Below, piece after piece: positions 3,563 through 36,570 of a DNA stretch of 36,570 bases. Made by a program: the position numbers and the translations under genes. This DNA comes from an uncultured Acidobacteriota bacterium (lineage in GTDB: Bacteria; Acidobacteriota; Thermoanaerobaculia; Multivoradales; SZUA-115): positions 1 through 36,570 of the forward strand of contig CALMKX010000116.1 of NCBI GenBank assembly GCA_937867335.1, given 5' to 3'. The notes below the pieces were generated by a model. The model ran no database searches and was not told the origin of the DNA. It was given only the letters and a program-made list of their open reading frames with translations. Within the stretch, counting starts at the first letter, position 1. The number at the start of each line of letters is the position of its first letter.

Positions 3563-3593
3563 GCCGAGATCCTGAACCTGGAGACCTGAGTCC

Positions 3594-4253
3594 ATGAAAA
3601 GGTTTTTCTCGAGACCCGGAACGGCCGCCTGGGCGCTTGTCGCCCTGCTGGCGTTCCCGGCTGCTGCCTCGGCCGCCGAGGGGACCGGCAACCCGCGCCC
3701 CAAGTCGCCCTTTCCCACCGGCGCGCCCCAGGTGCAGAAAGTGGTGGAGGAGAACGCCTACTTCTACCGCACGCTGCTCTACCAGCCGGCGGTCGAAGTG
3801 CGAGCCATCACCCACGACAAGGCTTCCTACGCCACGCCGGAAGAGGCGACCATCGCGGCGATCTCGGCCATGCTCTCGGCGGACTATGGCTGGTTCCTCG
3901 AAACCTGGACGGCCGATTCCCGTCGCCAGCTGGAGGCCCGCAACCAGGCTCTGGGCAGGAGCCCGGAGTTCTGGCAGGAGGGCTGGAAGAAGGCTTTCGG
4001 GGGGATGCGCGTAGAGCTCGTCACGCGGATCGAAACCGGCCCCTACGTGCTGATCGCCTACTCGCTGACGCCCCAGAACGAGGCGGCAGGGGCTCCTGGG
4101 GCCAAGAAGAAGCCTTTTCTCACCAGTGTGCTGAAGAACGATGGCGGGCGCTGGCTGGCGACGCAGGAGATGGCCGCCGACCCGGTGCTGATGTTCTGGG
4201 ACCAGCCCGGCTATCACGTGCAGAAAATGGCTCGAAACGTCGACCCCCAGTAG
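3594..4253 (+). CDS. Small secreted protein of unknown function
   Basis: The 219-residue product starts with a clear Sec signal peptide (MKRFFSRPGT, then a hydrophobic run ending in AAASAAEG, cleavage near residue 27). GGAGACC lies upstream of the ATG. The mature protein is soluble, with a mixed alpha/beta pattern (VVEENAYFYRTLLYQPAVEV, AAISAMLSADYGWFLETW), and resembles an SnoaL/NTF2-like fold only in overall look. I do not recognise a family, and it has no lipobox or membrane anchor. It lies 31 bp after the Ig-like protein and 35 bp before the membrane PH-like protein, so the four genes from 1547 to 13746 are probably one transcript. A role in handling the large exported neighbours is possible but is only a contextual guess. 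Confidence 0.75.
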   Translation: MKRFFSRPGTAAWALVALLAFPAAASAAEGTGNPRPKSPFPTGAPQVQKVVEENAYFYRTLLYQPAVEVRAITHDKASYATPEEATIAAISAMLSADYGWFLETWTADSRRQLEARNQALGRSPEFWQEGWKKAFGGMRVELVTRIETGPYVLIAYSLTPQNEAAGAPGAKKKPFLTSVLKNDGGRWLATQEMAADPVLMFWDQPGYHVQKMARNVDPQ

Positions 4254-4288
4254 GCAGCGGATCAACAGGAAAGGTTTTCGCCGAAGTC

Positions 4289-4840
4289 ATGAGCTTGCCC
4301 GCAGAGATCGTGCTCCTGCCCGACGAACGGCTGGTGTGGTCCGGCCGGCCGGAGCGGCTGCCGTACGCGCTCTCCGGCCTGGCGCTGTCGCTCATCGGTG
4401 CCGCCTGGCTGGTGCTGCCTCTGCTCACCTGGCGAGACCTCCGAGCCGGCAAGCCGGTGGCCTCGGCGGTGCCCCGGCAGGCGCTCGAGCTGGCGCTGCT
4501 GGCAGCGATTCTCTTCGGCTTGCTGCTCGTGGCGACGCCGCTCTACCGGGCCTGGCGGCAAGGCCGGGTGTTCTATGCCCTGTCCGACCGCCGGGTGTTC
4601 CTGCTCGAGGGCCCGGCGGGGCTGGCTGTGCTGCGTTTGTCGCAGGTCAAGGGTGTGGCGCTCGAGCAGCGCTGGTTCGAGCGGATTTTCGGCACCGCCA
4701 CGATTCATTTCTGGTGCGGCGAGATGATCGTGCGGCGCTTCGTGGGGCCGCGCTACCACAGCTTTCGATTCCTCGCCCAGGCACCGCAGGTTTTCGCTCA
4801 GATCGAAGAACTCTTAGAGAGAACGGGTGTGCGTCCATGA
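4289..4840 (+). CDS. Membrane protein with bacterial PH-like domain
   Basis: This 183-residue protein begins with a short cytosolic segment containing LLPDERLVWSGRPERLPYAL, a pattern typical of bacterial PH-domain membrane proteins. Two transmembrane segments follow at about residues 27-48 and 64-88. A C-terminal beta-rich domain then begins with VFYALSDRRVFLLEG and continues through the VLRLSQVKGVALEQRWFERI region, as in the bPH_1/YdbS-like families. Such proteins are membrane-bound and mostly uncharacterised. The stop codon overlaps the start of the giant secreted protein as ATGA, so the two are probably translationally coupled. No catalytic residues are evident. The family assignment rests on pattern only. 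Confidence 0.7.
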   Translation: MSLPAEIVLLPDERLVWSGRPERLPYALSGLALSLIGAAWLVLPLLTWRDLRAGKPVASAVPRQALELALLAAILFGLLLVATPLYRAWRQGRVFYALSDRRVFLLEGPAGLAVLRLSQVKGVALEQRWFERIFGTATIHFWCGEMIVRRFVGPRYHSFRFLAQAPQVFAQIEELLERTGVRP

Positions 4841-15950: not shown

Positions 15951-18900
15951 ATGGCTTCGACCGATGATCTGCGGAAGTCGGATGTGCTGGACAAAGTTGC
16001 CAACGAAGTTCGCGAGCGGCTGGGCGGGCCGGCGGGGCAGGCGGCGGAGGCCTTCACCCGGCGCTACTACGCCGGGGTGGCGGTAGACGACCTGCGCAGC
16101 CGCAGCACCCAGGATCTGGTGGGCGGCGCCCTCTCGCTGTGGATGCTGGCCCGGACCCGGCAGCCGGACGAGATCCTCGTCCGGGTGTTCAACCCCGAGC
16201 TCGAGAACGACGGCTGGACCTGCCGCCACACGGTGGTGGAGATGGTCAACACCGACCGCCCCTTCCTGGTGGACTCGGTGACCGCCGAGCTCCACCGCCA
16301 GGGCTTCGAGGTGCGGCTGGTGATCCACCCCGTGGTGCGGGTGGAGCGCAACGCCGCCGGAGAGGTGGTGGGGGTGGTGGACGAGGCGGCTCCCACGGCC
16401 GACGAGGTGCCGGTCGAGTCTCTGATGCACTTCGAGATCGATCGCATCGGCACCGCGGCCGAGCGGGAGAGCCTGCGCCAGGAGCTGCTGCACGTGCTCG
16501 CCACGGTGCGGGCGGCGGTGGACGACTGGATTCCCATGACCAACCGCCTGCAGTCGATCCTCGATGAGCTCCGGGACCGCCCGTTGCCGCCCGGGGTGGC
16601 CCAGGAGGAGCTGGACGAGACGGTGGCCTTCCTCGAGTGGCTGGTGGACGACCACATCACCTTCCTGGGCTTCCGGGACTACGAGCTGGTGCCCGGGGAG
16701 CGGGGCGAGGTGCTCCGGGCGGTGGACGGCTCCGGCCTCGGCATCCTGCGCGACGAGCTGCGTCTGTCTTCCACCCGCTCGCGCGAGCTCACGCCAGAGA
16801 TGAGCGCCTTCGCCCGCCGGCCGGAGCTGGTGTTCGTCACCAAAACCAACCGGCCCTCCCAGGTGCACCGCCCGGCGCACATGGACTACATCGGCATCAA
16901 GCGCTTCGACGCCGCCGGCAAAGTGGTGGGAGAGCACCGCTTCCAGGGCCTCTTCACCTCCCTGGCCTACCGCGAGCTGGCCGAGGAGATTCCGCTGCTG
17001 CGCCGCAAGGTGAAGTTGGTGATGCAGCGCGCCGGCTTCCGCCCCAAGGGCCACGACGCCAAGGCCCTGGCGCACATCCTCGAGACCTTCCCCAGGGACG
17101 AGCTTTTCCAGATCTCCCCCGGCGAGCTCTACGACACCGCGATGGGCATCCTGCAGCTCCAGGAGCGCCGGCGCCTGGCGGTGTTCATCCGCAAGGACAC
17201 CTTCGAGCGCTTCATCGCCTGCATGGTCTTCGTGCCCAGGGATCGCTACTCCACGGATCTACGCGAGCGCATAGAGGGCATCCTCGAGCGGGCCTTCGAC
17301 GGCAAGATCGGGGCGGTCTACACCCAGGTGGGCGTGGAGCCGCTGGCGCGGATCCAGTTCTTCCTTTCCGTGACCCCGGGCAAAGTGCCGGCCTACAACC
17401 CCCGCGACATCGAGGCCACCCTGGCCGAGAACGTGCGCGGCTGGAGCGATAGCCTGGCCGAGGTGCTGCGGGCCAAGGAGAGCGAGGAGCGGGCCGGCGA
17501 GCTGCTGCGCAAGTTCAGCGGTGCCTTCCCGATCGCCTACCAGGTGGCCAACCGCCCGGAGCAGGCGAGCTTCGACCTCGAGCGCATCGAGGAGGTGCTG
17601 GCCTCCGGTGGCCTCTCGTTGCACCTCTACCGGCCGGTGGGCATGGCCCGCAACCGGGCCCGCTTCAAGGTCTACGACGCCGACGACCCGCTACCGCTCT
17701 CAGAAGTGGTGCCGCTGTTCGAGAACCTCGGCTTCAAGGTGGTGGCCGAGCAGCCTTACCAGGTGCAGCCGCCGGGAGGGCGGGTGGTGTGGGTGCGGGA
17801 CTTCGACCTGGTCTCTCTCGACGGCAGCGACTTCGACCCTGCCGACGTGCGCGACGGCCTGCAGGAGACCTTCGCCCGGGTGCGTTCCGGCGAGGCCGAG
17901 AGCGACGGCCTCAACCGCCTGGTGCTCGCGGCACGGCTGTCATGGCGAGAGGTGGCGATCCTACGGGCCTACTTGAAGTACCTGCGCCAGGCCCGAATCC
18001 CCTTCGGCCAGGAGTACATGATCCAGACCCTGACTCGCAACGCCCCGGTGGCTCGCCTCTTGGTAGAGCTCTTCCGGGCGAGCTTCGACCCGGACCTTGC
18101 GGGCGACCGCGGGGCCCAGGTGGCGGGGATCCAGGAGCAGCTCGCCGAGGCGATGAACCGGGTGGCCAACGCCGAGGAGGACCGCGTGCTGCGCCGGTTC
18201 TCGAACGCTCTGCAGTCCACCCTGCGCACCAACTACTTCCAGCAAGGAGAAGGCGGCGGCCCGAAGCCTTACCTCTCCTTCAAGCTCAACTCCCACGAGC
18301 TGGTAGGCCTGCCCTCGCCTCGACCGCTCTACGAGATCTGGGTCTATTCGCCGCGGGTGGAGGCCATCCACCTGCGGGGCGGCAAGGTGGCCCGGGGTGG
18401 CATCCGCTGGTCCGACCGGCCGGAAGATTTCCGCACCGAGATCCTCGACTTGATGAAGACCCAGATGGTGAAGAACGCGGTGATCGTGCCGGTGGGCGCC
18501 AAGGGCGGCTTCGTGGTGAAGCGGCCGCCGGCCGACCGCCAGGCGTTCCAGGAAGAGGGCGTGGCCTGCTACAAGATGCTGGTACGCGGCCTGCTCGACA
18601 TCACCGACAACTACCGGGGCAACGAGATCGTGCCGCCGCCGCGGGTGGTGCGCCGCGATGAAGGAGACCCCTACCTGGTGGTGGCGGCGGACAAGGGTAC
18701 CGCCACCTTCTCGGACATCGCCAACGGTCTCTCGGCCGAGTATTCCTTCTGGCTGCGGGACGCCTTCGCCTCCGGCGGCTCGGCGGGCTACGACCACAAG
18801 AAGATGGCGATCACCTCCCGCGGTGCCTGGGAGTCGGTGAAACGCCACTTCCGCGAGATGGGCAAGGACACCCAGAGCCAGGATTTCACCGTGGTGGGCG

Positions 18901-20777
18901 TTGGGGACATGTCCGGAGACGTCTTCGGCAACGGCCTGCTGCGCTCGCACCATACCCGGCTGCTCGCCGCCTTCAACCACCTGCACATCTTCCTCGACCC
19001 CGACCCGGACCCGGCCGCGAGCTTCGAGGAGCGCCAGCGCCTGTTCGACCTGCCCCGCTCGACCTGGATGGACTACGACCCGGCGAAGATCTCCCAGGGC
19101 GGTGGCGTCTTCGATCGCAAGGCGCGCAGCCTCGAGCTCTCCCCCGAGGCCGCCGAAGTGCTCGGCTTGAAAGCCGGGCCGATCGCTCCGGACGAGCTGA
19201 TCCAGGGCCTGCTGCGGGCGAGCGTCGACCTGCTCTGGCTGGGCGGCATCGGCACCTACGTCAAGGCCTCCACCGAAAGCCACGAGCAGGCCAAGGACCA
19301 CGCCAACGACAGCCTGCGCATCGACGCCACCGAGCTGCGGGCGAAGGTGATCGGCGAGGGTGCGAACCTCGGCATGACCCAGCGAGCGCGGGTGGAATTC
19401 GCGCTCCGCGGCGGGCGGCTCAATACCGATGCCATCGACAACTCGGGCGGCGTGGACTGCTCGGACCACGAGGTCAACATCAAGATCCTCTTGAACGAGG
19501 TGGTGGGCAACGGCGACCTCACCTTGAAGCAGCGGGACCAGCTGCTCGAGAGCATGACCGACGAGGTGGCCGAACTGGTGCTGCGCGACAACTACCAGCA
19601 GACCCAGGCGATCACCGTGGCCCAGGCCCAGGGGGCGGCCGGGCTCGACCGCCAGGCGCGGATGATCCGCGAGCTCGAACGCGCCGGCAAGCTCGATCGC
19701 AAGCAGGAGGCCCTACCGGACGACGACACCCTGGCCGATCGCCAGGCGAGCAACCAGGGACTCACCCGCCCCGAACTCGCCGTGCTCCTCGCCTACAGCA
19801 AGATCACCCTCTACGACGAATTGCTGGGCTCCGACCTGCCGGACGATGCGCTGGTGGCCGAGGACCTGGTGGTCTACTTCCCGAAGCCGCTCCGCGATGG
19901 CTTCGGCGAGGCCATCCATCGCCACCGGCTGCGCCGGGAGATCACCGCCACCCACGTCACCAACAGCATGGTGAACCGCGTGGGCCCCACCTTCGTCATC
20001 CGCATGAAGACGGCGAGCGGCGCCTCGGCGGCGGACGTCGCCCGGGCCTATGTGGTGGTGCGCGACGCCTTCGAGCTGCGGCCGCTGTGGGCCCAGATCG
20101 AGGCGCTCGACACCCAGGTGCCGGCGGATGTGCAAAGCGCCATGATCCTCGCCAGCAAGGAGCTGATCGAGCGGGCCACGCTCTGGCTGCTGCGCCGCCG
20201 ATTCCGCGAGATCGGCCTGACTGCCACGGCCCTGCGCACCTCGATCCACGCCCTGGCGGAGAATGCCGAGCAGATCCTGCCTTCCTCGGACGTCACCGCC
20301 TGGAAGCGAAAGGAGCGCCGCATGGTGCGGGCCGGGGTGCCGGAAGACCTGGCCACCCGGGTGGCCAGCCTGGACTTCCTGGCCTCGGCGCTCGATATCG
20401 CCGAGATCGCCGGCGAGCGCCAGCGACCGGTCGAAGAGGTGGGGCAGGTCTTCTACCATGCCGGCGCCCGCTTCGGCTTCGACTGGCTGCGCGAGCAGAC
20501 CGAGAAGCTGCCGGCGGACACGCCGTGGCAGCGTGAGGTACGCGCCGAGCTCGCCGAGGAGCTGTTCCGCCAGCAGAGCCGGCTCACCGCCCAGGTGGTG
20601 GCCGGCACTGCCGACAGTGGCGGCGCCAGGAGCGCCATCGACAGCTGGGCCGAGGGGCGCGAGGAGAGCGTGCGCCGCTGCCATGAGCGGATCTCCGAGC
20701 TCAAGGCCGTGGGCTCGGCCGACCTGGCGATGATCTCCGTGGCCCGCAGCCGGCTGGCCGAGTTGGTGGGAGGCTGA
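15951..20777 (+). CDS. Large NAD-specific glutamate dehydrogenase (about 180 kDa class)
   Basis: ATG 15951 follows GAGGAGAGCC. The 1,608-residue product matches the usual 1,600 residues of the large bacterial NAD-GDH class known from Pseudomonas and Caulobacter, which oxidatively deaminates glutamate to 2-oxoglutarate in the cytosol. A long N-terminal regulatory region with ACT-like segments (about 1-700) precedes the catalytic core. The core includes RGGIRWSDRPEDFRTEILDL and VPVGAKGGFVVK, with catalytic Lys851, then the NAD-binding TVVGVGDMSGDVFGNGLL (Gly983 onward), and GEGANLGMTQRARVEF. The C-terminal helical part is also complete. It stands alone between RidA and the convergent copper operon, so it is probably a single-gene transcript used for glutamate catabolism. 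Confidence 0.95.
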   Translation: MASTDDLRKSDVLDKVANEVRERLGGPAGQAAEAFTRRYYAGVAVDDLRSRSTQDLVGGALSLWMLARTRQPDEILVRVFNPELENDGWTCRHTVVEMVNTDRPFLVDSVTAELHRQGFEVRLVIHPVVRVERNAAGEVVGVVDEAAPTADEVPVESLMHFEIDRIGTAAERESLRQELLHVLATVRAAVDDWIPMTNRLQSILDELRDRPLPPGVAQEELDETVAFLEWLVDDHITFLGFRDYELVPGERGEVLRAVDGSGLGILRDELRLSSTRSRELTPEMSAFARRPELVFVTKTNRPSQVHRPAHMDYIGIKRFDAAGKVVGEHRFQGLFTSLAYRELAEEIPLLRRKVKLVMQRAGFRPKGHDAKALAHILETFPRDELFQISPGELYDTAMGILQLQERRRLAVFIRKDTFERFIACMVFVPRDRYSTDLRERIEGILERAFDGKIGAVYTQVGVEPLARIQFFLSVTPGKVPAYNPRDIEATLAENVRGWSDSLAEVLRAKESEERAGELLRKFSGAFPIAYQVANRPEQASFDLERIEEVLASGGLSLHLYRPVGMARNRARFKVYDADDPLPLSEVVPLFENLGFKVVAEQPYQVQPPGGRVVWVRDFDLVSLDGSDFDPADVRDGLQETFARVRSGEAESDGLNRLVLAARLSWREVAILRAYLKYLRQARIPFGQEYMIQTLTRNAPVARLLVELFRASFDPDLAGDRGAQVAGIQEQLAEAMNRVANAEEDRVLRRFSNALQSTLRTNYFQQGEGGGPKPYLSFKLNSHELVGLPSPRPLYEIWVYSPRVEAIHLRGGKVARGGIRWSDRPEDFRTEILDLMKTQMVKNAVIVPVGAKGGFVVKRPPADRQAFQEEGVACYKMLVRGLLDITDNYRGNEIVPPPRVVRRDEGDPYLVVAADKGTATFSDIANGLSAEYSFWLRDAFASGGSAGYDHKKMAITSRGAWESVKRHFREMGKDTQSQDFTVVGVGDMSGDVFGNGLLRSHHTRLLAAFNHLHIFLDPDPDPAASFEERQRLFDLPRSTWMDYDPAKISQGGGVFDRKARSLELSPEAAEVLGLKAGPIAPDELIQGLLRASVDLLWLGGIGTYVKASTESHEQAKDHANDSLRIDATELRAKVIGEGANLGMTQRARVEFALRGGRLNTDAIDNSGGVDCSDHEVNIKILLNEVVGNGDLTLKQRDQLLESMTDEVAELVLRDNYQQTQAITVAQAQGAAGLDRQARMIRELERAGKLDRKQEALPDDDTLADRQASNQGLTRPELAVLLAYSKITLYDELLGSDLPDDALVAEDLVVYFPKPLRDGFGEAIHRHRLRREITATHVTNSMVNRVGPTFVIRMKTASGASAADVARAYVVVRDAFELRPLWAQIEALDTQVPADVQSAMILASKELIERATLWLLRRRFREIGLTATALRTSIHALAENAEQILPSSDVTAWKRKERRMVRAGVPEDLATRVASLDFLASALDIAEIAGERQRPVEEVGQVFYHAGARFGFDWLREQTEKLPADTPWQREVRAELAEELFRQQSRLTAQVVAGTADSGGARSAIDSWAEGREESVRRCHERISELKAVGSADLAMISVARSRLAELVGG

Positions 20778-25144: not shown

Positions 25145-28976
<3,832 letters not shown>

Positions 28977-28983
28977 GCCGCGC

Positions 28984-29022
28984 GGCTCTCCCGTTCCCGC
29001 GACAGACGGGGGCGGGAGAGCC
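28984..29022 (+). terminator. Candidate terminator after the Lys-C-like protease
   Basis: A perfect 10-bp inverted repeat, GGCTCTCCCG (28984-28993) and CGGGAGAGCC (29013-29022), lies 8 bp after the stop codon. A CTTCCTCACCTTTCGC stretch and a TTTTTT run follow at about 29043-29048. The T-run is about 20 nt late for a classic intrinsic terminator, but the position and the stem strength fit transcription ending here. Confidence 0.55.
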
Positions 29023-29398
29023 CTTCCTCACCTTTCGCAACGTTTTTTCAATCGTCCCAGCAAAGAGACTCGCAAGCTGCACTCGGGCGTCTGCTGAGCG
29101 CCGGCAATTGTGCAGTTTCTGGGTCGAGCGTTCGCCCTTCGATCCGCACTGAAAGAAGCGCGCGGAGGGTTGTTCGTGCAGCCACACCGTCGCTTCGGTG
29201 TGCTACCGATCGCTCGCAGAGCGCTGGATCGAGTAGGTAAGAGCCGACTTGTTGAGCTTTCTATTCCACCTTTCGGCAGGGGAAAGTGCGGTCCTCTCAA
29301 CTGGGCAAGTCCTGCGTTATGAGAACTCACACCGCAGGTCTTGCGAGTCTCGTGAGGCAGTGTTATAGAAAACCAGAGTTCACATGCACATATACGAC

Positions 29399-29428
29399 TT
29401 GCCAAGTTTTTTATCCTTCGGCTAGACT
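29399..29428 (+). promoter_or_regulatory. Candidate sigma-70 promoter of the hydrazine-type operon
   Basis: TTGCCA at 29399-29404 (5 of 6 to TTGACA) and TAGACT at 29423-29428 (4 of 6 to TATAAT) are separated by 18 bp, within the AT-richer part of the leader. No other pair of this quality was noticed between the protease and the FAD oxidoreductase gene. Confidence 0.4.
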
Positions 29429-29517
29429 GATATTGGGTTCTGCGGAGCTTGTCCGGGTTATCGCTCCGAACGAAGGTAGAACCTTTCCAAACCGAGTTGG
29501 GCAGGAGATCTCACTTC

Positions 29518-30897
29518 ATGAAGATGCTCGCGGCTGCTCGCCTGGAGGGAAGGATCTCGGCGAAATGGTCTTCGAACGGACACCGGTGGCGAGTAGAACC
29601 CCGAGCCTTGCCGGTCGACGACGGTCGCAGTGGGTGGCTCAGGTGGCTCGAGCCTCCCGGGGCGTATCGAGCGCTCGCCGGCAAGGTTCGTGTGGACTGT
29701 GCCGTGGTGGGCGCCGGCTTCACCGGCCTGGCCCTCGCCCGGCGGCTCCATGAGCTGCGGCCGGGCTGGCGAATCGCCGTGGTGGACGCCCAGCGAGCGG
29801 GAACCGGCGCTTCGGGCCGCGCCTCTGGCTTCGTGGTCGATCTGGTGGATTTCACCGCGGCGCTCGACGCCGAGGACCGCGCCCGCTACGTGCGGGTGGC
29901 GCGTGCCGGTATCGCGGAGCTGCGCCGGCTGGTGGCCGAACTCGGCATCGATTGCTGGTGGGACGAGACGGGCTGGATGCGCGCCGCCCGCGGGCCTCGA
30001 GGCATGCGCTTCCTGTCGAGCTGGCCACGCCTGCTCGAGGATTTCGAGATCGCCTATCGCTGGCTCGACTCCGCCGAGCTCTCTCAGGTGATCGGCTCGG
30101 AGTTCTATCAAGCCGCCGTGAGGCTGCCCGGCTCGATCTTGATCCATCCGGGACGCCTGGTCCGGGGCCTCGCGGCGGCGCTGCCGCCGGCGGTCGATCT
30201 CTACGAGTGCTCGCCGGTGCTCGCGATCGAGCGCGGAGCGAGTTTCGAGCTCACCACACCGGGGGGGCGCCTCGTCGCGGACAAGCTCTTTGTGACCGCC
30301 AACGGCTACTCGCAGGCGCTGGGCTTCGGCGCGCGGCAGATTTTTCCGGTCTTCACCTTCGGCAGCTTCACTCGACCGCTGAGCGAAGCGGAGCAGGCGT
30401 CGATCGGTGGCGAGCGCGAGTGGGGCATCCTGGCGATGGATCCCATGGGCTCCACCGTCCGTCGCCTGCGCGACGGGCGCCTGCTGATCCGCAACACAGT
30501 GCACTACACACGGGGGCTCAGGCTTCCGGAAGCGGTGCTGGAGAAGGCGCGCCGCGAGCATCGCAGGGCGCTTCTGGCACGCTTCCCGAGCCTGGCCGAG
30601 GTGGGCTTCGAGTCCACCTGGAGCGGGCTGATGGGCACTTCTCGAACTCGTCTCTATACCTTCGGCGAGCTCGAGCCGGGGCTTTTCCTGGCCGGCGGCT
30701 TCACCGGCGCCGGCATTGCCCAGGGCGCCATCGTGGGCCGGCTGCTCGCCGAGCTCGCCCTCGGCGAGGACTCGGCCCTGCTGCGGGACCAACTCGCTTT
30801 GCCTTCACCTTTTCGAATGCCAGTGGAACCGTTGCGCAGCATGGGCGGGTGGTGGCTGGTTCAGCGCATGAACCATGCCGCTGGAGACTGCCTATGA
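29518..30897 (+). CDS. DAO-family FAD-dependent oxidoreductase (Spb39/Tri27-like hydrazine pathway oxidase)
   Basis: ATG 29518 follows AGGAGA at good spacing; an in-frame TTG at 29449 lacks support. The 459-residue protein has a 55-residue leading segment. The FAD-binding fold follows, VDCAVVGAGFTGLALARRL (Gly65-x-Gly67-x2-Gly70), then RAGTGASGRASGF, and the C-terminal FAD-contacting GLFLAGGFTGAGIAQGA. This is the glycine oxidase / gamma-glutamylputrescine oxidase type of the DAO family. In s56-p1 and triacsin biosynthesis such an enzyme oxidises the N6-(carboxymethylamino)lysine intermediate to release hydrazinoacetic acid and 2-aminoadipate semialdehyde. The role here is inferred from the two partner genes directly downstream. 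The stop overlaps the next small ORF as ATGA. It is the first gene of the operon. An unrelated amine oxidase is the main alternative. Confidence 0.85.
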   Translation: MKMLAAARLEGRISAKWSSNGHRWRVEPRALPVDDGRSGWLRWLEPPGAYRALAGKVRVDCAVVGAGFTGLALARRLHELRPGWRIAVVDAQRAGTGASGRASGFVVDLVDFTAALDAEDRARYVRVARAGIAELRRLVAELGIDCWWDETGWMRAARGPRGMRFLSSWPRLLEDFEIAYRWLDSAELSQVIGSEFYQAAVRLPGSILIHPGRLVRGLAAALPPAVDLYECSPVLAIERGASFELTTPGGRLVADKLFVTANGYSQALGFGARQIFPVFTFGSFTRPLSEAEQASIGGEREWGILAMDPMGSTVRRLRDGRLLIRNTVHYTRGLRLPEAVLEKARREHRRALLARFPSLAEVGFESTWSGLMGTSRTRLYTFGELEPGLFLAGGFTGAGIAQGAIVGRLLAELALGEDSALLRDQLALPSPFRMPVEPLRSMGGWWLVQRMNHAAGDCL

Positions 30898-30983
30898 GCG
30901 AGCCCGAATCACCGTTCGCGCCGCCGGGCGCGGGCGCTCCCTTCAATTCGATCGTTCAGGAGCCAGCCGGGGCGAAACCATGA
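30894..30983 (+). CDS. 29-residue ORF, translationally coupled between oxidase and hydroxylase
   Basis: ATG 30894 overlaps the stop of the oxidoreductase as ATGA, and the TGA at 30981-30983 overlaps the ATG of the hydroxylase in the same way. A good Shine-Dalgarno (GGAG, 30882-30885) sits 8 nt before it, while the hydroxylase ATG at 30980 has only a distant one (AGGAG at 30958-30962). The peptide is Pro/Ala-rich (starting MSEPESPFAPPGAGAP, ending EPAGAKP) and matches nothing I know. It may be a coupling leader whose translation lets ribosomes reinitiate on the hydroxylase, or a true small protein. It was found by frame inspection, and the coding evidence is its geometry. Confidence 0.45.
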   Translation: MSEPESPFAPPGAGAPFNSIVQEPAGAKP

Positions 30984-32314
30984 ACAATGCGGAAGCAAAG
31001 ATTTACGGCCTGATTGGAGTCGGATTCGGCCCTTCGAACTTGGCCCTGGCCGCGGCCCTCCACGAACAGGGGCCGGCTTCGCTCGGAACGAAAGGGCCCA
31101 CGCTCTTTCTCGAGCAGAAGGAGGAGTTCGCCTGGCATCCCGGGATGATGCTGCCCGGAGCGCGGGTGCAGCTTTCCTTTCTCAAGGATCTGGTGACTCT
31201 GCGCAATCCGTGCAGCCGTTTTTCCTTTCTTTGCTACCTTCAGCACAAGAAGCGGCTGGACCGCTTTATCAATCGGCGCACTTTCTTTCCCACGCGGCAG
31301 GAGTTCAACGACTATTACCGCTGGGTCGCCGGGGAGCTCAGGGATTACGTGCGCTACGGCGCGCGGGTGCGGGCCATCCGGCCGGGCCGCGCAGGGGCCT
31401 CGGGCACGGTGCCGCTGCTCGAAGTGGAGCTCGAGGACCGCGCGACCGGCGAATGGGCGCGGCTTCTCACCCGCAACGTGGTGCTGGCGCTCGGCGGGCA
31501 GCCCGTGCTGCCCCCGGGGGTCCAGCTGAGCCCGGACGGGCGGGTGTTCCACGCCCAGGACTTCCTCGAGGCGGTGCCGGCCCGCTTCCCGGATCGCCAG
31601 GCCCCCCACCGCTTCGTGGTGGTGGGCTCGGGGCAGACGGCCGCCGAGGTCTTCCAATACCTCCTGCACCAGTATCCCCAGGCGACGGTGACCCTCGCCT
31701 TCCGCCGGCTGGCCTTGAAGCCGGCGGACGACAGCCACTTCGTCAACGAGATCTTCTTCCCGGAGATGGTGGACCGCTTCTACGGCCTGTCGCCGGCCCG
31801 CCGGCGAATGCTCCTCGCCATGCACCTCGACACCAACTACTCGGCGGTGGACACGGACCTGATCGCCGAGCTCTACGAGGAGCTCTACGAGCAGGAAGTG
31901 GCCGGAAGGCAGCGGGGGCGCATCTTGAACCTCTGCGAGCTCTTGAGCCTCGAAGAGGGGCCGGAGGGGGTGACCACGCGGCTCCGCGGCGGTTTCGAGG
32001 AGCAAGAACAGCGGCTGCAGTCGGACGCTGTGATCCTCGCCACCGGCTTCGAGCGCTGCCAGCGCCCGGCCCTGCTCGAGGAGCTGCGGCCGTATCTGCT
32101 GCTCGACGAGACCGGTGCCTACCGGGTGCTGCGCAACTTCCGGGTGGACGCCCGGCCGGAGCTGGTGCCCGGCGTGTTTCTCCAGGGCTCGAACGAGCGC
32201 ACCCACGGCCTTTCCGACACCCTGTTGTCCACCCTGGCGGTGCGCTCGGCGGAGATCCTCCAGGCGGTGGCCACGGCGGAACCGGCGTTCGCCGCCGCCC
32301 TCCAGGAGCCCTGA
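30980..32314 (+). CDS. L-lysine/L-ornithine N-hydroxylase (flavin monooxygenase, Spb38/Tri26-like)
   Basis: The 444-residue protein belongs to the IucD/PvdA/SidA family, which uses FAD, NADPH and O2 to hydroxylate the side-chain amine of lysine or ornithine. Visible motifs: FAD-binding GVGFGPSNLALAAAL (13 on), substrate-region GARVQLSFLKDLVTLRNPCS, NADPH-binding VVVGSGQTAAEV (Gly216-Ser-Gly-Gln-Thr), and the family's ATGF (354-357). Length is normal for the family. ATG 30980 is chosen because the longer in-frame start at 30875 would overlap the oxidoreductase and lacks a ribosome-binding site. In siderophore clusters this enzyme prepares hydroxamates. Here the cupin-MetRS gene 56 bp downstream points to N-N bond formation instead. 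Lysine is the expected substrate by analogy with Spb38, but lysine versus ornithine cannot be decided by eye. Confidence 0.92.
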   Translation: MNNAEAKIYGLIGVGFGPSNLALAAALHEQGPASLGTKGPTLFLEQKEEFAWHPGMMLPGARVQLSFLKDLVTLRNPCSRFSFLCYLQHKKRLDRFINRRTFFPTRQEFNDYYRWVAGELRDYVRYGARVRAIRPGRAGASGTVPLLEVELEDRATGEWARLLTRNVVLALGGQPVLPPGVQLSPDGRVFHAQDFLEAVPARFPDRQAPHRFVVVGSGQTAAEVFQYLLHQYPQATVTLAFRRLALKPADDSHFVNEIFFPEMVDRFYGLSPARRRMLLAMHLDTNYSAVDTDLIAELYEELYEQEVAGRQRGRILNLCELLSLEEGPEGVTTRLRGGFEEQEQRLQSDAVILATGFERCQRPALLEELRPYLLLDETGAYRVLRNFRVDARPELVPGVFLQGSNERTHGLSDTLLSTLAVRSAEILQAVATAEPAFAAALQEP

Positions 32315-32357
32315 CCGCCCTTGCCGGGTTCCTCAACTTTCACGATGCGCTCGCCCT

Positions 32358-32362
32358 GGAGG
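32358..32362 (+). promoter_or_regulatory. Ribosome-binding site deciding the start of the cupin-MetRS gene
   Basis: GGAGG lies 8 nt before ATG 32371. It fixes the start at the beginning of the cupin domain although the frame is open for more than 1 kb upstream. Confidence 0.7.
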
Positions 32363-32370
32363 TTCTGCCC

Positions 32371-34410
32371 ATGCGAACGTTGAAGCTCAGTGCCGAGCAG
32401 TGGCATTCCGCCTACGACATCCTCTGCCAGGGGCTGCTGCCGGCCGAGGTGGCCGAGCAGGCCCCCTTCTATCCCTCCTGGTGCCGGGTGCCGCCTGGCG
32501 GCAGGGCCCGGGTTCACCGCCACCACGAGCACGAGGTCTTCCTCATTCTCCAGGGCCGCGGCTCGATGCGGGTGGAAGCGGAGAGTCAGGAACTCGGGCC
32601 CGGCGAGGCGGTGGCCATGGGCCCCTTCGAAGATCACGAGCTCGCGAACCTCTCGGAGACCGAGGAGCTGCACTTCCTGGCCCTGGTGTGGGAGCAGCTG
32701 CCGGAAGCCTTCGGCGCCAACCGGAGCCGACTCGCCGCGGAGCCTCGAGCGCGCCGGGTGCTGCTCACCGCCACTCCGCCCACGCCCAACGGGGACCTCC
32801 ACGTGGGCCACCTCTCGGGCCCCTACCTGGGAGCGGACATCCATCGTCGTTACCTGAAGATGAGGGGCGTCGAGGCGCTCTACCTCTCGGGCGTCGACGA
32901 CCACCAGACCTACGTCGAGCTCAAGGCTCGCCAGCAGGGGCTCGGCAACACCGAGGTGGCCGAGCGCTTCGGCCGGGCCATGGCGGCCACCCTCGCGGGC
33001 ATGGAGATCGAGCCCGATCTGTTCGCCCAGCCCTCGCGCTCGGCCCACCATGTCTCGCTCACCCAGGAGGTTTTCCTGCGCCTGTGGCAGAGCGGGTCGA
33101 TCGTCGCCCGGGAGGCGCCCACGCTTTACTGCGAGAGCTGCCAGCGCTTCCTCTTCGAGGCCCATGTGCGGGGCCGCTGCCCGTTCTGCGGCGCTGGCTG
33201 CGACGGCAACGCCTGCGAGGAATGCGGCCGGCCGAATGATTGCGTGGAGATTCTCGAGCCGCGCTGCCGCAGCTGTGGCGGCGAGCCGGTGGCCCGGCCT
33301 CTCGAGCGGCTCTATCTGCCGCTCGCGCCCCACGAGGCGACGGTGCGCGAGGTGCTGGCGAGCGCCAGCATGAACCCGCACCTCGCCAGCCTCGGCGAGC
33401 GCATGCTCGAGGCGGGCTTGCCGGAGATCGCGGTGAGCCAGCTCGGCAGCTGGGGCATCCCGGTGCCGATCGAGCGCTTCGCCGAGCAGAAGATCTACGT
33501 CTGGTTCGAGATGGCCCCGGGCTACCTCGCCGCCATCCAGGAACTGCTCGAGGCCCGCGGCAGCCGGGAGAGCTGGCGGGATCTGCTCACCGATGCCGGC
33601 ACCGAACTCGTGCAGTTCTTCGGCTTCGACAACGGCTACTACCACTCGGTGCTCTTCCCGGTGATCTTCCGCGCCCTCGACCCGGCTCTGCGCCTGCCTT
33701 CGGCTTTCGTGGTCAACGAGTTCTATCGCTACGAGGGCTCCAAGTTCTCCACCAGCAGGAACCATGCGATGTGGGGCCAGCAGCTGCTGGCGCGGGTGGC
33801 GCCGGATGTGGCGCGCTTCTACCTCGCCTGGGACGGGCCGGAGCGGGTGCAGAGCAATTTCCGCTTCGTGGACCTCGAGGCCACCGTGGAGCGCGAGCTG
33901 GTCGAAGGCTGGAACGGCTGGCTGCTCGAGCTGGGGGAGAGGCTGCGCTCGGAGTTCGCCGGCGTGGTGCCCTCGGCCGGCGCCTGGAGCGAGGACCACC
34001 AGCGCTTCTACCAGGACCTCGAAGCCACCGTGGCGGAGCTCGCCGGCTGCTACGAGGCCGCGGGCTTCTCGCCCCAGCGGGCGGCTCGGGGGCTGTCGGA
34101 GCTGGTGCGGCGCAGCCGCCGGTTCGCCAGCGCCGAGCGCCACTGGCAGGGCATCGCCGGCCGCTTCGAGGAGCGCCGCACTTCGATCGCCCTCGAGCTG
34201 CTGGCGGCGAAGACTCTCGCCCTCGCCGCGGCGCCCATCCTGCCTGGCTTCTCGGCGCGGCTCCTAGCCGAGCTGGGCTATGAACCCGGCCAGGACGGCC
34301 CGCGCTGGGAGAGCCTGCCCGCCTTCGTGCCGCCCGGCCAGCGCATCACGGGTCTCGCGGAGCCCTTCTTCGCCTTCGAACGGGAAGCCGTGGCGGGTGG
34401 CTCACCGTGA
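32371..34410 (+). CDS. Cupin-methionyl-tRNA synthetase-like fusion: probable hydrazine synthetase (Spb40/Tri28-like)
   Basis: This 679-residue protein joins an N-terminal cupin (about 1-115) to a class I MetRS-like domain. The cupin motif reads G43-x5-H49-x-H51-x3-E55-x6-G62 and a second motif supplies H89-x3-N93, so all four usual metal-ligand positions are present. The synthetase part has HIGH as HVGH (144-147), KMSKS as KFSTS (458-462), and a zinc-knuckle insert with CESC (254-257), CPFC (270-273), CEEC (282-285) and CRSC (299-302). A helical C-terminal domain is retained. In Spb40, Tri28 and the Rhodococcus homologue, the MetRS-like domain activates an amino acid and esterifies it to N-hydroxylysine, and the zinc-bound cupin rearranges this to the N-N bond. 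The same role is inferred here. The second amino acid is unknown (glycine in s56-p1). Its stop overlaps the NRPS start as GTGA. Confidence 0.92.
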   Translation: MRTLKLSAEQWHSAYDILCQGLLPAEVAEQAPFYPSWCRVPPGGRARVHRHHEHEVFLILQGRGSMRVEAESQELGPGEAVAMGPFEDHELANLSETEELHFLALVWEQLPEAFGANRSRLAAEPRARRVLLTATPPTPNGDLHVGHLSGPYLGADIHRRYLKMRGVEALYLSGVDDHQTYVELKARQQGLGNTEVAERFGRAMAATLAGMEIEPDLFAQPSRSAHHVSLTQEVFLRLWQSGSIVAREAPTLYCESCQRFLFEAHVRGRCPFCGAGCDGNACEECGRPNDCVEILEPRCRSCGGEPVARPLERLYLPLAPHEATVREVLASASMNPHLASLGERMLEAGLPEIAVSQLGSWGIPVPIERFAEQKIYVWFEMAPGYLAAIQELLEARGSRESWRDLLTDAGTELVQFFGFDNGYYHSVLFPVIFRALDPALRLPSAFVVNEFYRYEGSKFSTSRNHAMWGQQLLARVAPDVARFYLAWDGPERVQSNFRFVDLEATVERELVEGWNGWLLELGERLRSEFAGVVPSAGAWSEDHQRFYQDLEATVAELAGCYEAAGFSPQRAARGLSELVRRSRRFASAERHWQGIAGRFEERRTSIALELLAAKTLALAAAPILPGFSARLLAELGYEPGQDGPRWESLPAFVPPGQRITGLAEPFFAFEREAVAGGSP

Positions 34411-34900
34411 CCGAGCCGAGCTTCGAGGAGCTGCCGCTGTCCTGGGGCCAGAGCGGCCTCTGGGTGGTGGAGCAGCTGGAGCCGGGCAATCCGGCGTCGG
34501 TGATCGCCGCCGCCGGGCGGCTGCTATCCCCTCTGGAACCGGAGCGGCTCCGCGGAGCGCTACGCTGGCTGGTGGCTCGCCATGGGGCGCTGCGCACCAC
34601 CTTCGGCCTCTCCGGGGGCGAGCCTCGGCAGCGGGTGTGGAGCTGGCTGGAGCCGGAGTTCGTCGAGCGCTCGCTCGCCGAGGCGAGCCCTGCCGAGCTG
34701 CGCGCGGCCCTGCAGCACGAAGCCTTCCGGCCTTTCGACCTCGAACGCGGCCCACTGCTGCGGATGGCACTGGTGGAGCGCAGCCTCGAGCAAGGCGGCC
34801 GGGAGACCTTCTTGGTGGTGGCGATCCACCACCTGGTGGCGGATTTCTGGTCCCTCGGCCTGCTGGTCGAGGAGCTCGGCCGTCTCCTCGCCGGAGAGTC
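34407..34900 (+). CDS. NRPS condensation domain, N-terminal part, truncated
   Basis: GTG 34407 overlaps the stop of the cupin-MetRS gene (GTGA), so the gene is part of the same operon. About 165 residues are seen: LPLSWGQSGLWVVEQLEPGN (the condensation-domain C1 motif region), RHGALRTTFGL (C2), FDLERGPLLRMALV, and the active-site motif HHLVADFWSLGLLVEEL (HHxxxD with His, His, Asp intact; Phe replaces the usual Gly after Asp). A domain opening directly at the start codon suggests a starter condensation domain or a module accepting a substrate from another protein. The family sequence ends near LLAGES, and the DNA then becomes antisense to an ECF sigma factor. The real gene is presumably much longer and lost at a join. 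Confidence 0.85.
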
Positions 34901-34905
34901 CCTGC
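34884..34905. other. Putative chimeric junction: NRPS / ECF sigma factor
   Basis: The plus-strand condensation domain reads correctly up to about 34895, and the minus-strand sigma factor reads correctly from the right down to the same place (GLSGEE on the minus strand). The shared stretch, about 20 bases starting CTCCTCGCCGGAGAG, makes sense in both genes, as expected when a short common sequence mediates a wrong join. Confidence 0.6.
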
Positions 34906-35182
34906 ATGTCCCGCAAGACAACGGGGAGCCGGTGGACCGCGGGCAATGCCGCGAGTTCGCGCTCCACCAGCGCCAGGCACTCCGTTCGCGAGTAGATCGA
35001 CTCGGGATCGTCGCACCAGCGCTGCGCGGGTCTTGGCCGCAGCCCCGCTTCCTCGAAGGCCGGTTCGAGAGCCGGATCGACGCTTTCGAGCCTACGGTCT
35101 CGCCGCATCACTTGGAGCGCCTCGTTGATTGCGATCCGCGTGAGCCAGGTCGAGAACCGCGCGTCGCCCCGAAACTCGGCGA
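34890..35182 (-). CDS. ECF-type RNA polymerase sigma factor, internal fragment
   Basis: About 97 codons on the minus strand encode region 2 of an extracytoplasmic-function sigma factor (FRGDARFSTWLTRIAINEAL, then MRRDRR) and the start of region 4 (ELAALPAVHRLPVVLRDMQG, LSGEE). Both ends are missing: no region 2.1/2.2 upstream and no helix-turn-helix downstream. It is flanked by exonuclease III in frame on one side and by antisense NRPS on the other. A working sigma factor is therefore not encoded. Source organism unclear; the GC content is high. Confidence 0.8.
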
Positions 35183-35186
35183 TGTG
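35172..35186. other. Putative chimeric junction: sigma factor / exonuclease III
   Basis: On the minus strand exonuclease III reads properly to GYEHIA, where the family normally continues into a GQKGYHGVA-type segment. Instead the sequence passes in frame into sigma factor EFRGDARFSTW. The bases coding IAE fit both genes. Confidence 0.6.
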
Positions 35187-35351
35187 CTCGTAGCCCGCCT
35201 CGCGGATCGCCGCGGAGGGAAACTGGCCCTGCGGGCACTTGGTTTCCTGCAGGCAGAGCACGTCAGGCTGGTAAGACCGCAGGAATCGCTCGACCAGCGG
35301 CATCCTGAGGCGGACCGAATTGATGTTCCAGGTGGCAAGGGTGAAAGTCAT
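35180..35351 (-). CDS. xthA: Exodeoxyribonuclease III, N-terminal fragment (Rhizobiales-type)
   Basis: ATG 35351 opens MTFTLATWNINSVRLRMPLV, with the AP-endonuclease/EEP-fold Asn of WNINS, and continues through PDVLCLQETKCP, which carries the metal-binding Glu of the QET motif. About 57 of roughly 260 residues are present before the join to sigma factor sequence. The full-length enzyme is a DNA-repair AP endonuclease and 3'-5' exonuclease. It lies 29 bp after lolA on the same strand; ftsK-lolA-xthA is a conserved order in alphaproteobacteria such as Bradyrhizobium. The missing C-terminal catalytic residues make this copy non-functional as it stands. Confidence 0.88.
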
Positions 35352-35380
35352 GCGGGATCTGGTCGCAAGCGGGGCTCGCG

Positions 35381-36055
35381 CTATTTCTGGCTCTGCTTCT
35401 GGTTGATCTCGCGATTGCGCTGGTAGTTGATCTCGAACATCGACTGGTCGAGCTTCACGCCGTTCTGGACGTTCGAGATCATCACAGTCGTATCCTTGCC
35501 CTTGGCGTCGGTGATCGTCCATTCCAGCAATTCGCTGGTCTGCGGATTGAACTTCATGGTGATGGTCGAATTGCCGAACACGGATTTGTCGGCCAGCTGG
35601 ATGGTCGTCAAATCGTCCTCTTCCTTGACGCTTTTGACGCGGCCGCCGGTGAGGTCGATCGTGTCGTCCAGCAACAGCTTCAGCGGCGTCTTCGACAGCG
35701 GATAGAGGTCCGAGGTGCGCAGCTTCATATTCTCGATCACCACTGACTTGCCGTCCGCGATGACGCGGTAGTTGGACGGCGCATCGTAGTTGAAGCGGAT
35801 CTTGCCGGGACGCTGAATGTAGAACTTGCCGCCGGTCTGCTCGCCGCGCGGCCCGAACTGCACGAAATCGCCGCTCATCGTGCGGATCGAGCCGAAGTGC
35901 TCGGCGATCTGCTGGACGGTCTGCGTCGCTTCGGCCCGCGCGGAGCCGGGCGATCCGCCCACGACGGCGAAAGCCGCTCCGGCGAAGGCTATCGCCAGAG
36001 CCGCGCGACGCGTGCTGGCAATGGGTTTTTCCCTGTTCGTCATTTCAAAAAACAT
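35381..36055 (-). CDS. lolA: LolA-family outer-membrane lipoprotein carrier protein
   Basis: The 224-residue protein has a signal peptide with a Thr-Arg-Arg stretch (ASTRRAALAIAFAGAAFAVV), cleaved near SARAEA. A complete LolA-like beta domain follows: TMSGDFVQFGPRGEQTGGKF, then IQRPGKIRFNYDAPSNYRVI, and the C-terminal LLEWTITDAKGKDTTVMIS. LolA shuttles lipoproteins through the periplasm from LolCDE to the outer membrane. The start could be ATG 36055 or ATG 36043; the former is nearer a GGAAG. Base use and sequence are those of Rhizobiales and differ from the core contig. It is preceded by ftsK (96 bp gap) and followed by xthA. Confidence 0.92.
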   Translation of the reverse strand: MFFEMTNREKPIASTRRAALAIAFAGAAFAVVGGSPGSARAEATQTVQQIAEHFGSIRTMSGDFVQFGPRGEQTGGKFYIQRPGKIRFNYDAPSNYRVIADGKSVVIENMKLRTSDLYPLSKTPLKLLLDDTIDLTGGRVKSVKEEDDLTTIQLADKSVFGNSTITMKFNPQTSELLEWTITDAKGKDTTVMISNVQNGVKLDQSMFEINYQRNREINQKQSQK

Positions 36056-36151
36056 CCACTTCCGGGCCGGCGATTCGTTCTCCTGAACGATACGTCCCCT
36101 ACCCCTCCAGTTAGGCCGAACTTTGGCCCGTTCAAGGCCGGACTGCTGGAC

Positions 36152-36570
36152 CTACATCTTGTCCTGATCGGTCGGCACGAGGATCTCGCGCTTTCCGGCA
36201 TGATTGGCCGGGCCGACGATTCCCTCCTGCTCCATGCGCTCGATGATCGACGCCGCCTTGTTGTAGCCGACGCCGAGCCGGCGCTGGATATAGCTGGTCG
36301 ACGCCTTGCCGTCGCGCAGGACGACTGCAACGGCCTGATCGTAGGGATCCTCGGAATCGTCGAAATTGCCGCCGCCGCCACCGCCACGCGAGGGCTGGTC
36401 GTCGTCGTCTTCCTCGTCGTCCGCCGTGATGGCGTCGAGATATTCCGGCGCGCCTTGCGTCTTGAGGTGACGCACGATCTTCTCCACCTCGTCGTCGGAG
36501 ACGAACGGCCCGTGCACGCGCTGGATGCGGCCGCCGCCGGCCATGTAGAGCATGTCGCCCATGCCGAGCA
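36152..36570 (-). CDS. ftsK: DNA translocase FtsK, C-terminal part (gamma domain), runs off the window
   Basis: The last 139 or so codons are visible. They contain the end of the RecA-like motor (LGMGDMLYMAGGGRIQRVHG, FVSDDEVEKIVRHLKTQG), an acidic/Gly-rich linker (DDEEDDDDQPSRGGGGGG), and the winged-helix gamma domain that reads KOPS sequences (DPYDQAVAVVLRDGKASTSY, IQRRLGVGYNKAA). FtsK pumps DNA at the division septum and activates XerCD recombination at dif. Sequence details are those of alphaproteobacteria. The 5' portion lies beyond the window edge. Confidence 0.95.
   Translation of the reverse strand, partial: LGMGDMLYMAGGGRIQRVHGPFVSDDEVEKIVRHLKTQGAPEYLDAITADDEEDDDDQPSRGGGGGGNFDDSEDPYDQAVAVVLRDGKASTSYIQRRLGVGYNKAASIIERMEQEGIVGPANHAGKREILVPTDQDKM

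What the first reader, a model, noticed from the sequence alone, without database searches (positions are those of the whole stretch)
29518..34900. Hydrazine (N-N bond) biosynthesis operon leading into an NRPS, in an Acidobacteriota-like genome
Seen: FAD oxidoreductase, lysine/ornithine N-hydroxylase and cupin-MetRS fusion on one strand with short or overlapping spacing, followed by a condensation domain overlapping by GTGA. Known: hydroxylase + cupin-MetRS + FAD oxidoreductase is the Spb38/Spb40/Spb39 set (s56-p1) and the Tri26/28/27 set (triacsin), forming an N-N bond between N-hydroxylysine and an amino acid and releasing hydrazinoacetic acid. Inferred: this operon makes a hydrazino building block for a nonribosomal peptide. 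The characterised examples are actinobacterial, so a diderm, Acidobacteriota-like host and this gene order would be a new setting for the chemistry.
Basis: partly seen in the sequence, partly recalled or inferred. Interest (0 to 1): 0.92.

Follow-up and report, generated by a model that had tools for sequence, protein, structure and literature searches.

The report
Hydrazine-making operon beside a peptide synthetase
A bacterium of unknown name carries genes that look able to join two nitrogen atoms into a hydrazine next to a peptide-assembly gene; the bond-forming enzyme belongs to a known family, but its two partner enzymes do not match the best-known sets, so the product is uncertain.

Summary
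Window 29518-34410 encodes an FAD oxidoreductase, a lysine/ornithine-type N-hydroxylase and a cupin-MetRS protein on one strand. An NRPS condensation domain starts at 34407 (4-base overlap) and is cut near 34.9 kb by what looks like a chimeric assembly join.

The cupin-MetRS protein is a hydrazine synthetase by sequence: outside canonical MetRS (100/99), PyrN is its best solved relative, and the zinc-site positions of RHS1/PyrN and the KFSTS lysine are kept.

The "Spb38/39/40 set releasing hydrazinoacetic acid" reading is not supported. The hydroxylase falls with SidA, not with the azaserine-type cassette hydroxylases; the oxidoreductase is a different DAO subfamily (nearest to PuuB among three E. 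coli enzymes compared). Yet in the host's order its strong matches occur only with the synthetase: 12 of 13 genomes with it, 0 of 59 without.

A SpeD-like decarboxylase co-occurs too (10 of 13, 0 of 59), and the genome has a second synthetase locus. The chemistry is not new in diderms. Best reading: a new variant of a hydrazine-synthetase pathway with another cleavage enzyme, feeding NRPS(-PKS) lines. Product and host phylum are not shown.

The parts
28977..29517 (+). upstream intergenic region; one sigma-70-like site at 29399-29428
   Evidence: GC 0.55 at 29000-29499; 1 promoter-like site in 28900-29700 against a mean of 0.1 in shuffles, 0 terminator-like sites
29518..30897 (+). FAD-dependent oxidoreductase (DAO fold; branch of PuuB / L-pipecolate oxidase / aminophosphonate oxidoreductase), proposed hydrazine C-N cleavage enzyme
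   Evidence: PF01266 E 3.7e-51; TIGR03329 and AmaA 129.4 and 117.2 bits, both far below cut-off; apart from the cassette type; co-occurs with the synthetase in the order
30980..32314 (+). flavin-dependent L-ornithine/L-lysine N-hydroxylase, SidA/MbtG/PvdA/KtzI type
   Evidence: PF13434 E 3.4e-108; best solved relatives MbtG, SidA, PvdA, KtzI; SidA Lys107, Asn293, Asn323 and Ser469 positions kept (roles read)
32371..34410 (+). cupin-MetRS didomain hydrazine synthetase (679 aa); zinc-site positions H49, H51, E55, H89; HVGH at 144-147; KFSTS lysine K458
   Evidence: PF07883 and PF09334; best solved match PyrN by sequence and fold; tree; residues
34407..34905 (+). N-terminal third of an NRPS condensation domain, overlapping the synthetase stop by 4 bases; cut by the assembly
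   Evidence: PF00668 profile 4-170 of 456; HHLVADF motif
34875..34913 (.). first chimeric join (inferred): DNA that reads as C-domain on + and as ECF sigma factor on -
   Evidence: overlap of the two homologies
34905..36570 (-). foreign or misassembled DNA: ECF sigma fragment, XthA N-terminus (second join about 35178-35195), LolA, FtsK C-terminus; not part of the operon
   Evidence: besides itself only short 73-87% matches in this genome

Best explanation
A hydrazine-synthetase operon that supplies an N-N building block to a nonribosomal peptide line. The SidA-type hydroxylase N-hydroxylates the side-chain amine of L-ornithine or L-lysine (inferred). The MetRS-like domain adenylates a second amino acid and esterifies it onto the N-OH; the zinc cupin domain rearranges the unstable ester into an N-N bond (shown by others for PyrN/RHS1; inferred here from family membership and kept residues). 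The FAD oxidoreductase, a PuuB-branch DAO enzyme rather than the Spb39/Tri27/AzsM type, probably then oxidises a C-N bond of the adduct and frees a hydrazino acid (inferred from co-occurrence and enzyme class). The NRPS uses it (inferred from the gene overlap and from the operons of relatives). Second substrate and product are unknown. A second pathway in the same genome probably adds a SpeD-like pyruvoyl decarboxylase.
For: Synthetase: 30 hydrazine-synthetase-type rows separate from 5 canonical MetRS at 100/99; PyrN (9l8v, E 6.8e-93; 9vq4, whose aligned letters look the same, 1.1e-93) is best in the PDB by sequence, ahead of the first true MetRS (4.7e-71), and by fold; it scores below the canonical MetRS cut-off (313 of 587 bits) while a true MetRS exceeds it (695.5); window H49, H51, E55 and H89 align with RHS1 Asp63, His65, Glu69 and His103. 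Oxidoreductase: strong match (E 1e-114 or better) in 12 of 13 synthetase genomes and 0 of 59 others (Fisher 8e-13); same gene order FAD-hydroxylase-synthetase in G438 and G439; hydroxylase, synthetase, AMD and oxidoreductase together in G442. NRPS link: synthetase precedes NRPS-PKS genes in G428, G238 and G426.
Against: The NRPS piece is only about 166 residues before the chimeric join, so its use of a hydrazine is untested. No enzyme was assayed. The oxidoreductase could act on another amine; in G238, G246, G399, G424, G425, G426 and G428 it is not next to a synthetase gene. The best plasmid homologue of the hydroxylase lies beside an acetyltransferase, with an MbtH gene near, a siderophore-like context. 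Related genomes share ancestry, so the Fisher value overstates independence; G397 has the synthetase without the oxidoreductase. The strong/weak line was drawn after seeing the result: counting the two weak matches (G318, G405, E about 1e-37) gives 12/1/2/57.
Confidence: 0.72

Rival explanations
1. One reading: an Spb38/39/40-type cassette that joins N6-hydroxylysine to glycine and frees hydrazinoacetic acid.
For: Same three enzyme classes, didomain synthetase, DDxQ(S/T)YV motif shared with azaserine-type synthetases, NRPS directly downstream as in the S. lavendulae azaserine-like cluster.
Against: Hydroxylase and oxidoreductase both fall outside the cassette groups; gene order differs (FAD first, against hydroxylase-FAD-synthetase); no GNAT, AMP ligase or C45 peptidase among the 16 window proteins scanned, though the contig breaks early. 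Genuine Spb/Tri sequences were not in hand.
Confidence: 0.15
2. The oxidoreductase does not cleave the hydrazine; it feeds or drains an amine precursor (diamine or cyclic imino acid), and the intact hydrazine adduct is loaded onto the NRPS.
For: Nearest named enzyme compared is PuuB (27%, E 7e-23) and the AmaA/TIGR03329 models score best; plasmid relatives of about 40% identity sit in catabolic-looking operons in the three that I opened.
Against: Co-occurrence with the synthetase in the order and adjacency in the window, G438, G439, G442 and G396; known pathways often cleave the adduct.
Confidence: 0.25
3. A hydroxamate siderophore locus with an unrelated tRNA-ligase-like gene.
For: Hydroxylase best matches are MbtG, SidA and PvdA and a plasmid gene beside an acetyltransferase.
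Against: The synthetase is firm by family and residues, lies beside a hydroxylase gene in 12 other loci of the order, and the four operon proteins include no acyltransferase.
Confidence: 0.05

Closest known systems
PyrN (pyrazomycin) and RHS1 with its MetRS-like partner (Rhodococcus jostii RHA1)
   Same: Cupin plus MetRS-like architecture; best solved relative; zinc-site and KFSTS-lysine positions kept
   Different: About 34% identity to PyrN; PyrN and the RHA1 set use N6-hydroxylysine and L-Glu; window keeps the DD motif that the RHA1 protein and PyrN lack; no saccharopine dehydrogenase (the PyrL-type step) among the window proteins scanned
Hydrazinoacetic-acid cassettes Spb38/39/40, Tri26/27/28, AzsL/M/N
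   Same: Three enzyme classes in one operon, NRPS directly downstream in the azaserine type
   Different: Hydroxylase and oxidoreductase fall outside the cassette groups; FAD gene comes first; no carrier domain found on the window synthetase
Por9/Por11 of Pseudomonas orientalis
   Same: Diderm host; the synthetase accepts N5-hydroxyornithine, one of the two substrates possible here
   Different: Sequences not in hand, so relation untested
E. coli PuuB and TIGR03329 / AmaA oxidoreductases
   Same: Same DAO branch as the window oxidoreductase
   Different: 27% identity to PuuB; scores far below both family cut-offs

Membership tests
Cupin-MetRS hydrazine synthetase | Cupin and MetRS-like domains in one protein or adjacent | tested here: met
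   PF07883 at 37-104 and PF09334 at 131-514
Cupin-MetRS hydrazine synthetase | Outside canonical MetRS, inside the synthetase group | tested here: met
   100/99 split in a 35-row tree; PyrN best in PDB by sequence and fold
Cupin-MetRS hydrazine synthetase | Zinc-site residues (RHS1 D63, H65, E69, H103; PyrN H50, E56, H90) | tested here: met
   H49, H51, E55, H89 (residues read)
Cupin-MetRS hydrazine synthetase | HIGH-like and KMSKS-like adenylation motifs | tested here: met
   HVGH and KFSTS; the 30 synthetase-type rows keep H(L/V/I)GH and KFST(S/T)
Cupin-MetRS hydrazine synthetase | Forms an N-N bond | not testable with these tools
   needs an assay
Hydrazinoacetic-acid cassette (Spb/Tri/Azs) | Oxidoreductase of the Spb39/Tri27/AzsM type | tested here: not met
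   Window protein in another group; the reference is the protein in the AzsM position of an azaserine-like cluster and five relatives, not Spb39 itself
Hydrazinoacetic-acid cassette (Spb/Tri/Azs) | Lysine hydroxylase of the cassette group | tested here: not met
   Window with SidA (41%) on the other side of a 100/100 split; the eight cassette-side hydroxylases are 28-34% identical. Hydroxylases of Deinococcus, Pantoea and Rhodobacteraceae hydrazine loci lie on the window's side
Hydrazinoacetic-acid cassette (Spb/Tri/Azs) | Glycine as second substrate, hydrazinoacetic acid as product | not testable with these tools
   no specificity table in hand
Lysine/ornithine N-hydroxylase | Family match and substrate-binding residues | tested here: met
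   PF13434; SidA K107, N293, N323, S469 positions kept; lysine or ornithine not resolved
NRPS | C-A-PCP module | tested here: inconclusive
   Only the first third of a C domain before the chimeric join

The most novel reading that the evidence does not exclude
In this order of bacteria the hydrazine-synthetase pathway has its own enzyme set: a PuuB-branch oxidase that replaces the Spb39-type and saccharopine-dehydrogenase-type cleavage enzymes and, in a sister pathway, a SpeD-derived pyruvoyl decarboxylase that acts on the ornithine/lysine part (precursor or hydrazine adduct). That would be another way to free a hydrazine unit and, as far as my searches show, the first SpeD relative in N-N chemistry, feeding long lipopeptide-polyketide lines.
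Probability: 0.35. Interest if true: 0.7.

Novelty: new variant of a known kind. Interest (0 to 1): 0.55.

Why it matters
Hydrazine natural products are rare and reactive, and the enzyme that frees the hydrazine unit decides which product forms. A set of genomes in which a different oxidase and a SpeD-like decarboxylase travel with hydrazine synthetase points to untested chemistry and to large NRPS-PKS clusters whose products may hold N-N bonds. It also corrects the idea that this chemistry is confined to actinobacteria.

Tried and rejected
Rejected: (a) whole-set identity with Spb/Tri cassettes. (b) The other 16 of the 19 matching genomes in the 396-genome phylum search as synthetases: the matches cover the MetRS part only; one (L058, G037) passes the canonical MetRS cut-off, it and three more group with canonical MetRS, the other 12 were not tested one by one. 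(c) AMD as housekeeping SpeD: G397 and G426 hold a separate, higher-scoring SpeD besides it, though the host itself has no other AdoMet_dc match. Other low-scoring SpeD-like proteins exist in seven synthetase-free genomes but do not match AMD at 1e-6.

Led nowhere: joining the NRPS to other contigs. C368 (C-A-PCP-TE, then an ABC transporter 44% identical to the one beside the G238 synthetase) and C285 both begin inside a C domain past the window's break; no fetched locus outside this contig shares a 21-base word with window 34840-34960. Structure of the oxidoreductase: single-sequence model useless (pLDDT 33), not searched. Host phylum: the last genome search told no kinship. AMD has no plasmid match at 1e-8. 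Amino acid specificity of the MetRS domain: not attempted for lack of a code table.

Rows left out or changed: I dropped six rows (Pantoea, Deinococcus, L076, L077, SolA, DadA) and added four plasmid oxidases; long open frames were trimmed to their last 460 residues; the cupin alignment leaves out Terriglobia L075, whose protein holds only the MetRS part.

Literature: PMC11705231 (section 15 whole, passages); PMC8664883, PMC10445470, PMC7347517 and PMC10407285 (passages; start of abstract in listings); others only as search listings. 'Not found in print' is limited to the searches; the mining papers that the review cites as refs 82 and 125 did not appear in them.
Full report
WHAT IS THERE. On the + strand the window holds an FAD oxidoreductase (29518-30897), a PF13434 hydroxylase (30980-32314), a cupin-MetRS fusion (32371-34410) and the start of an NRPS condensation domain (from GTG 34407, sharing GTGA with the stop). 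Gaps are 82 and 56 bases, then a 4-base overlap. GC drops to 0.55 in the 500 bases before the operon, with one promoter-like site.

THE CONTIG BREAKS. At about 34.9 kb the C-domain frame runs into DNA that reads on the other strand as an ECF sigma factor; near 35.18 kb this joins an XthA N-terminus, and LolA and an FtsK C-terminus follow. GC falls from 0.70 through 0.66 to 0.62, and besides itself this stretch has only short partial matches in the genome. I read this as a chimeric assembly with joins at short shared words (inference). The C domain is thus cut at profile position 170 of 456 for technical reasons. Own contigs C368 and C285 start inside a C domain past that point and could continue it; C368 ends in TE, followed by an ABC transporter 44% identical to the one beside the G238 synthetase. 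This is a lead, not a join.

THE SYNTHETASE. In a 35-row tree the window protein lies among 30 hydrazine-synthetase-type rows, apart from 5 canonical MetRS (100/99), and nearest to G238 and G428 copies (97/81). PyrN, a characterised hydrazine synthetase, is its best PDB relative by sequence (9l8v 6.8e-93, 9vq4 1.1e-93, against 4.7e-71 for the first true MetRS) and by fold (model of moderate quality, pLDDT 70.8). It scores 313 bits where canonical MetRS needs 587; a true MetRS of the phylum scores 695.5. RHS1 binds zinc with Asp63, His65, Glu69 and His103, all needed for activity, and PyrN has His50, Glu56 and His90 (PMC8664883, passages); the window has H49, H51, E55, H89. HVGH and KFSTS are kept. 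Membership is as firm as sequence can make it.

THE HYDROXYLASE. Best solved relatives are MbtG (Lys), SidA, PvdA and KtzI (Orn). Positions of SidA Lys107, Asn293, Asn323 and Ser469, whose role in ornithine binding is described in PMC7347517 (passages), are kept. In a 25-row tree the window lies on one side of a 100/100 split with SidA, 11 hydroxylases of its own order (the 12 together 89/94, not a strong group) and the hydroxylases of Rhodobacteraceae, Deinococcus and Pantoea hydrazine loci; the other side holds those of Streptomyces, Rhizobium, Sinorhizobium, Mesorhizobium, RHA1 and Terriglobia L075 (28-34% identity to the window). So this hydroxylase type is not unique to the order among hydrazine loci, but it is not the azaserine-cassette type. 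Lysine or ornithine cannot be decided, because MbtG is a lysine enzyme. The kept carboxylate-binding lysine favours an amino acid over a free diamine (inference).

THE OXIDOREDUCTASE. The S. lavendulae plasmid cluster has the gene order given for azaserine in PMC10445470 (passages), so its oxidoreductase stands in the AzsM (Tri27/Spb39) position. Window oxidoreductase and this type share only short matches (E 1.9e-5 to it, best 6.7e-6 to the NBC_00868 relative) and form groups separated at 99-100%. Window relatives are PuuB (27%, E 7e-23) and the TIGR03329 and AmaA models, both below cut-off. The oxidoreductases of the Rhodobacteraceae, Deinococcus and Pantoea hydrazine loci are again unlike it (E 1.6e-4 or worse), so cleavage enzymes may have been recruited more than once. 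Its family is not shown to be closed against plasmid oxidases of about 40% identity, three of which sit in catabolic-looking operons. Genuine Spb39 and Apy10 were not in hand.

CO-OCCURRENCE IN THE ORDER. Of 72 genomes of the order, 13 have the synthetase (E 1e-80 or better), 12 a strong oxidoreductase match, all 12 among the 13, and 10 a SpeD-like protein, AMD, all among the 13. Fisher 8e-13 and 5e-10, inflated by shared ancestry. Two weak oxidoreductase matches (E about 1e-37) lie in synthetase-free genomes and were left out; G397 has the synthetase but no oxidoreductase. The carriers lie in families f1, f4, f5, f7 and f90, and f5, f7 and f90 also hold genomes without the set. The hydroxylase gene adjoins the synthetase gene in 12 other loci of the order; it was not found beside G238a, G238b, G397a, G426a and the G399 copies. 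G442 has hydroxylase, synthetase, AMD and oxidoreductase on one 6.8-kb contig; G438 and G439 (same family as the host) have FAD-hydroxylase-synthetase in the window's order; in G396 the oxidoreductase follows the synthetase. In G238, G246, G399, G424, G425, G426 and G428 the oxidoreductase is not next to a synthetase gene, though in G238 it lies with AMD and a hydroxylase. AMD lies among hydrazine genes in 7 of its 10 genomes (host C65, G238, G246, G397, G424, G426, G442) and on another contig than the synthetase in G396, G425 and G428.

TWO PATHWAYS IN ONE GENOME. Besides the window set, C14 holds hydroxylase, synthetase and a gene with two P450 regions, and C65 an oxidoreductase copy, AMD and an NRPS piece. 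In the oxidoreductase tree the window groups with G399, G438 and G439 (95/98; 92/95 in the second tree), the three synthetase genomes that lack AMD. Hydroxylases of the AMD-linked type share other pocket-side residues (SDFTN, DVNYA) than window-type ones (SHFVN, DTNYS). I infer two pathway types.

AMD. It passes the Pfam AdoMet_dc cut-off (57.1 bits against 25) but not the SpeD equivalog cut-off (43.4 against 75.65). Its Ser, His and Cys align with SpeD positions known for processing and catalysis, but HTW is changed to HTS (E 0.0077; residue roles recalled). SpeD relatives can decarboxylate ornithine or arginine (PMC10407285, start of abstract and passages). PuuB-like and SpeD-like partners both hint at aminoalkyl substrates; this is a guess.

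NRPS LINK. In G428 the order is ABC, hydroxylase, synthetase, then FAAL-like-C-A-PCP-KS-AT-KR-PCP, KS-AT-PCP-C-A-PCP-C-A-PCP and a further long NRPS; G238 is alike without the hydroxylase, and in G426 the synthetase precedes a FAAL-like-KS-AT-NRPS gene (own domain scan; the FAAL label is recalled, from the G238 hit). That is 3 of the 18 other synthetase matches; I did not scan the surroundings of all of them for NRPS domains. So a synthetase opening an assembly-line operon recurs, though the window NRPS starts with a C domain instead.

SETTING. Not new for diderms: Pseudomonas, Ralstonia, Corallococcus, Colwellia, Microcystis and Mesorhizobium are listed in PMC11705231 (section 15), and I saw cassettes on Rhizobium and Sinorhizobium plasmids and in a Terriglobia MAG (L075). 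Host phylum is not told by the tools; an ADOP-family permease on C65 is consistent with Acidobacteriota (link recalled). On hydrazine synthetase and this phylum one search listed two papers (on anammox and on wheat seeds) and one on metallophores, none opened; on hydrazine synthetase and SpeD one search found none.

VERDICT. Real operon, known enzyme family, new variant of the surrounding pathway. Interest 0.55.

Noticed in passing
window 34905-36570: Chimeric contig end: ECF sigma, XthA, LolA and FtsK fragments joined to the NRPS, apparently at short shared words; may mark contamination of this assembly.
   Followed up: partly
L037 (G000:C14) 1615-4464 -: Gene with two P450 regions in one protein (950 aa) directly after the second hydroxylase-synthetase pair.
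   Followed up: partly
L037 (G000:C14) 8100-9266 -: FGGY kinase fused in frame to a D-Ala-D-Ala ligase C-terminus, probably another chimeric join.
   Followed up: no
L128 650-3109 and L129 5931-8387: Hydrazine synthetases of G438 and G439 carry two tandem cupin regions (about 820 aa).
   Followed up: partly
L081 1603-3636, L123 2647-4707, L127 7629-9404, L043 8046-8903: FG-GAP/ASPIC-UnbV protein repeatedly near the AMD-type hydrazine loci.
   Followed up: no
L159 (Mesorhizobium plasmid) 2736-7908: Hydroxylase and hydrazine synthetase with a phytanoyl-CoA dioxygenase-family gene between them, near nif-type ferredoxin and ACC deaminase genes on a plasmid of a Lotus isolate.
   Followed up: no
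window 15951-20774: Large NAD-specific glutamate dehydrogenase (PF05088 and GDH domains, 1608 aa).
   Followed up: no
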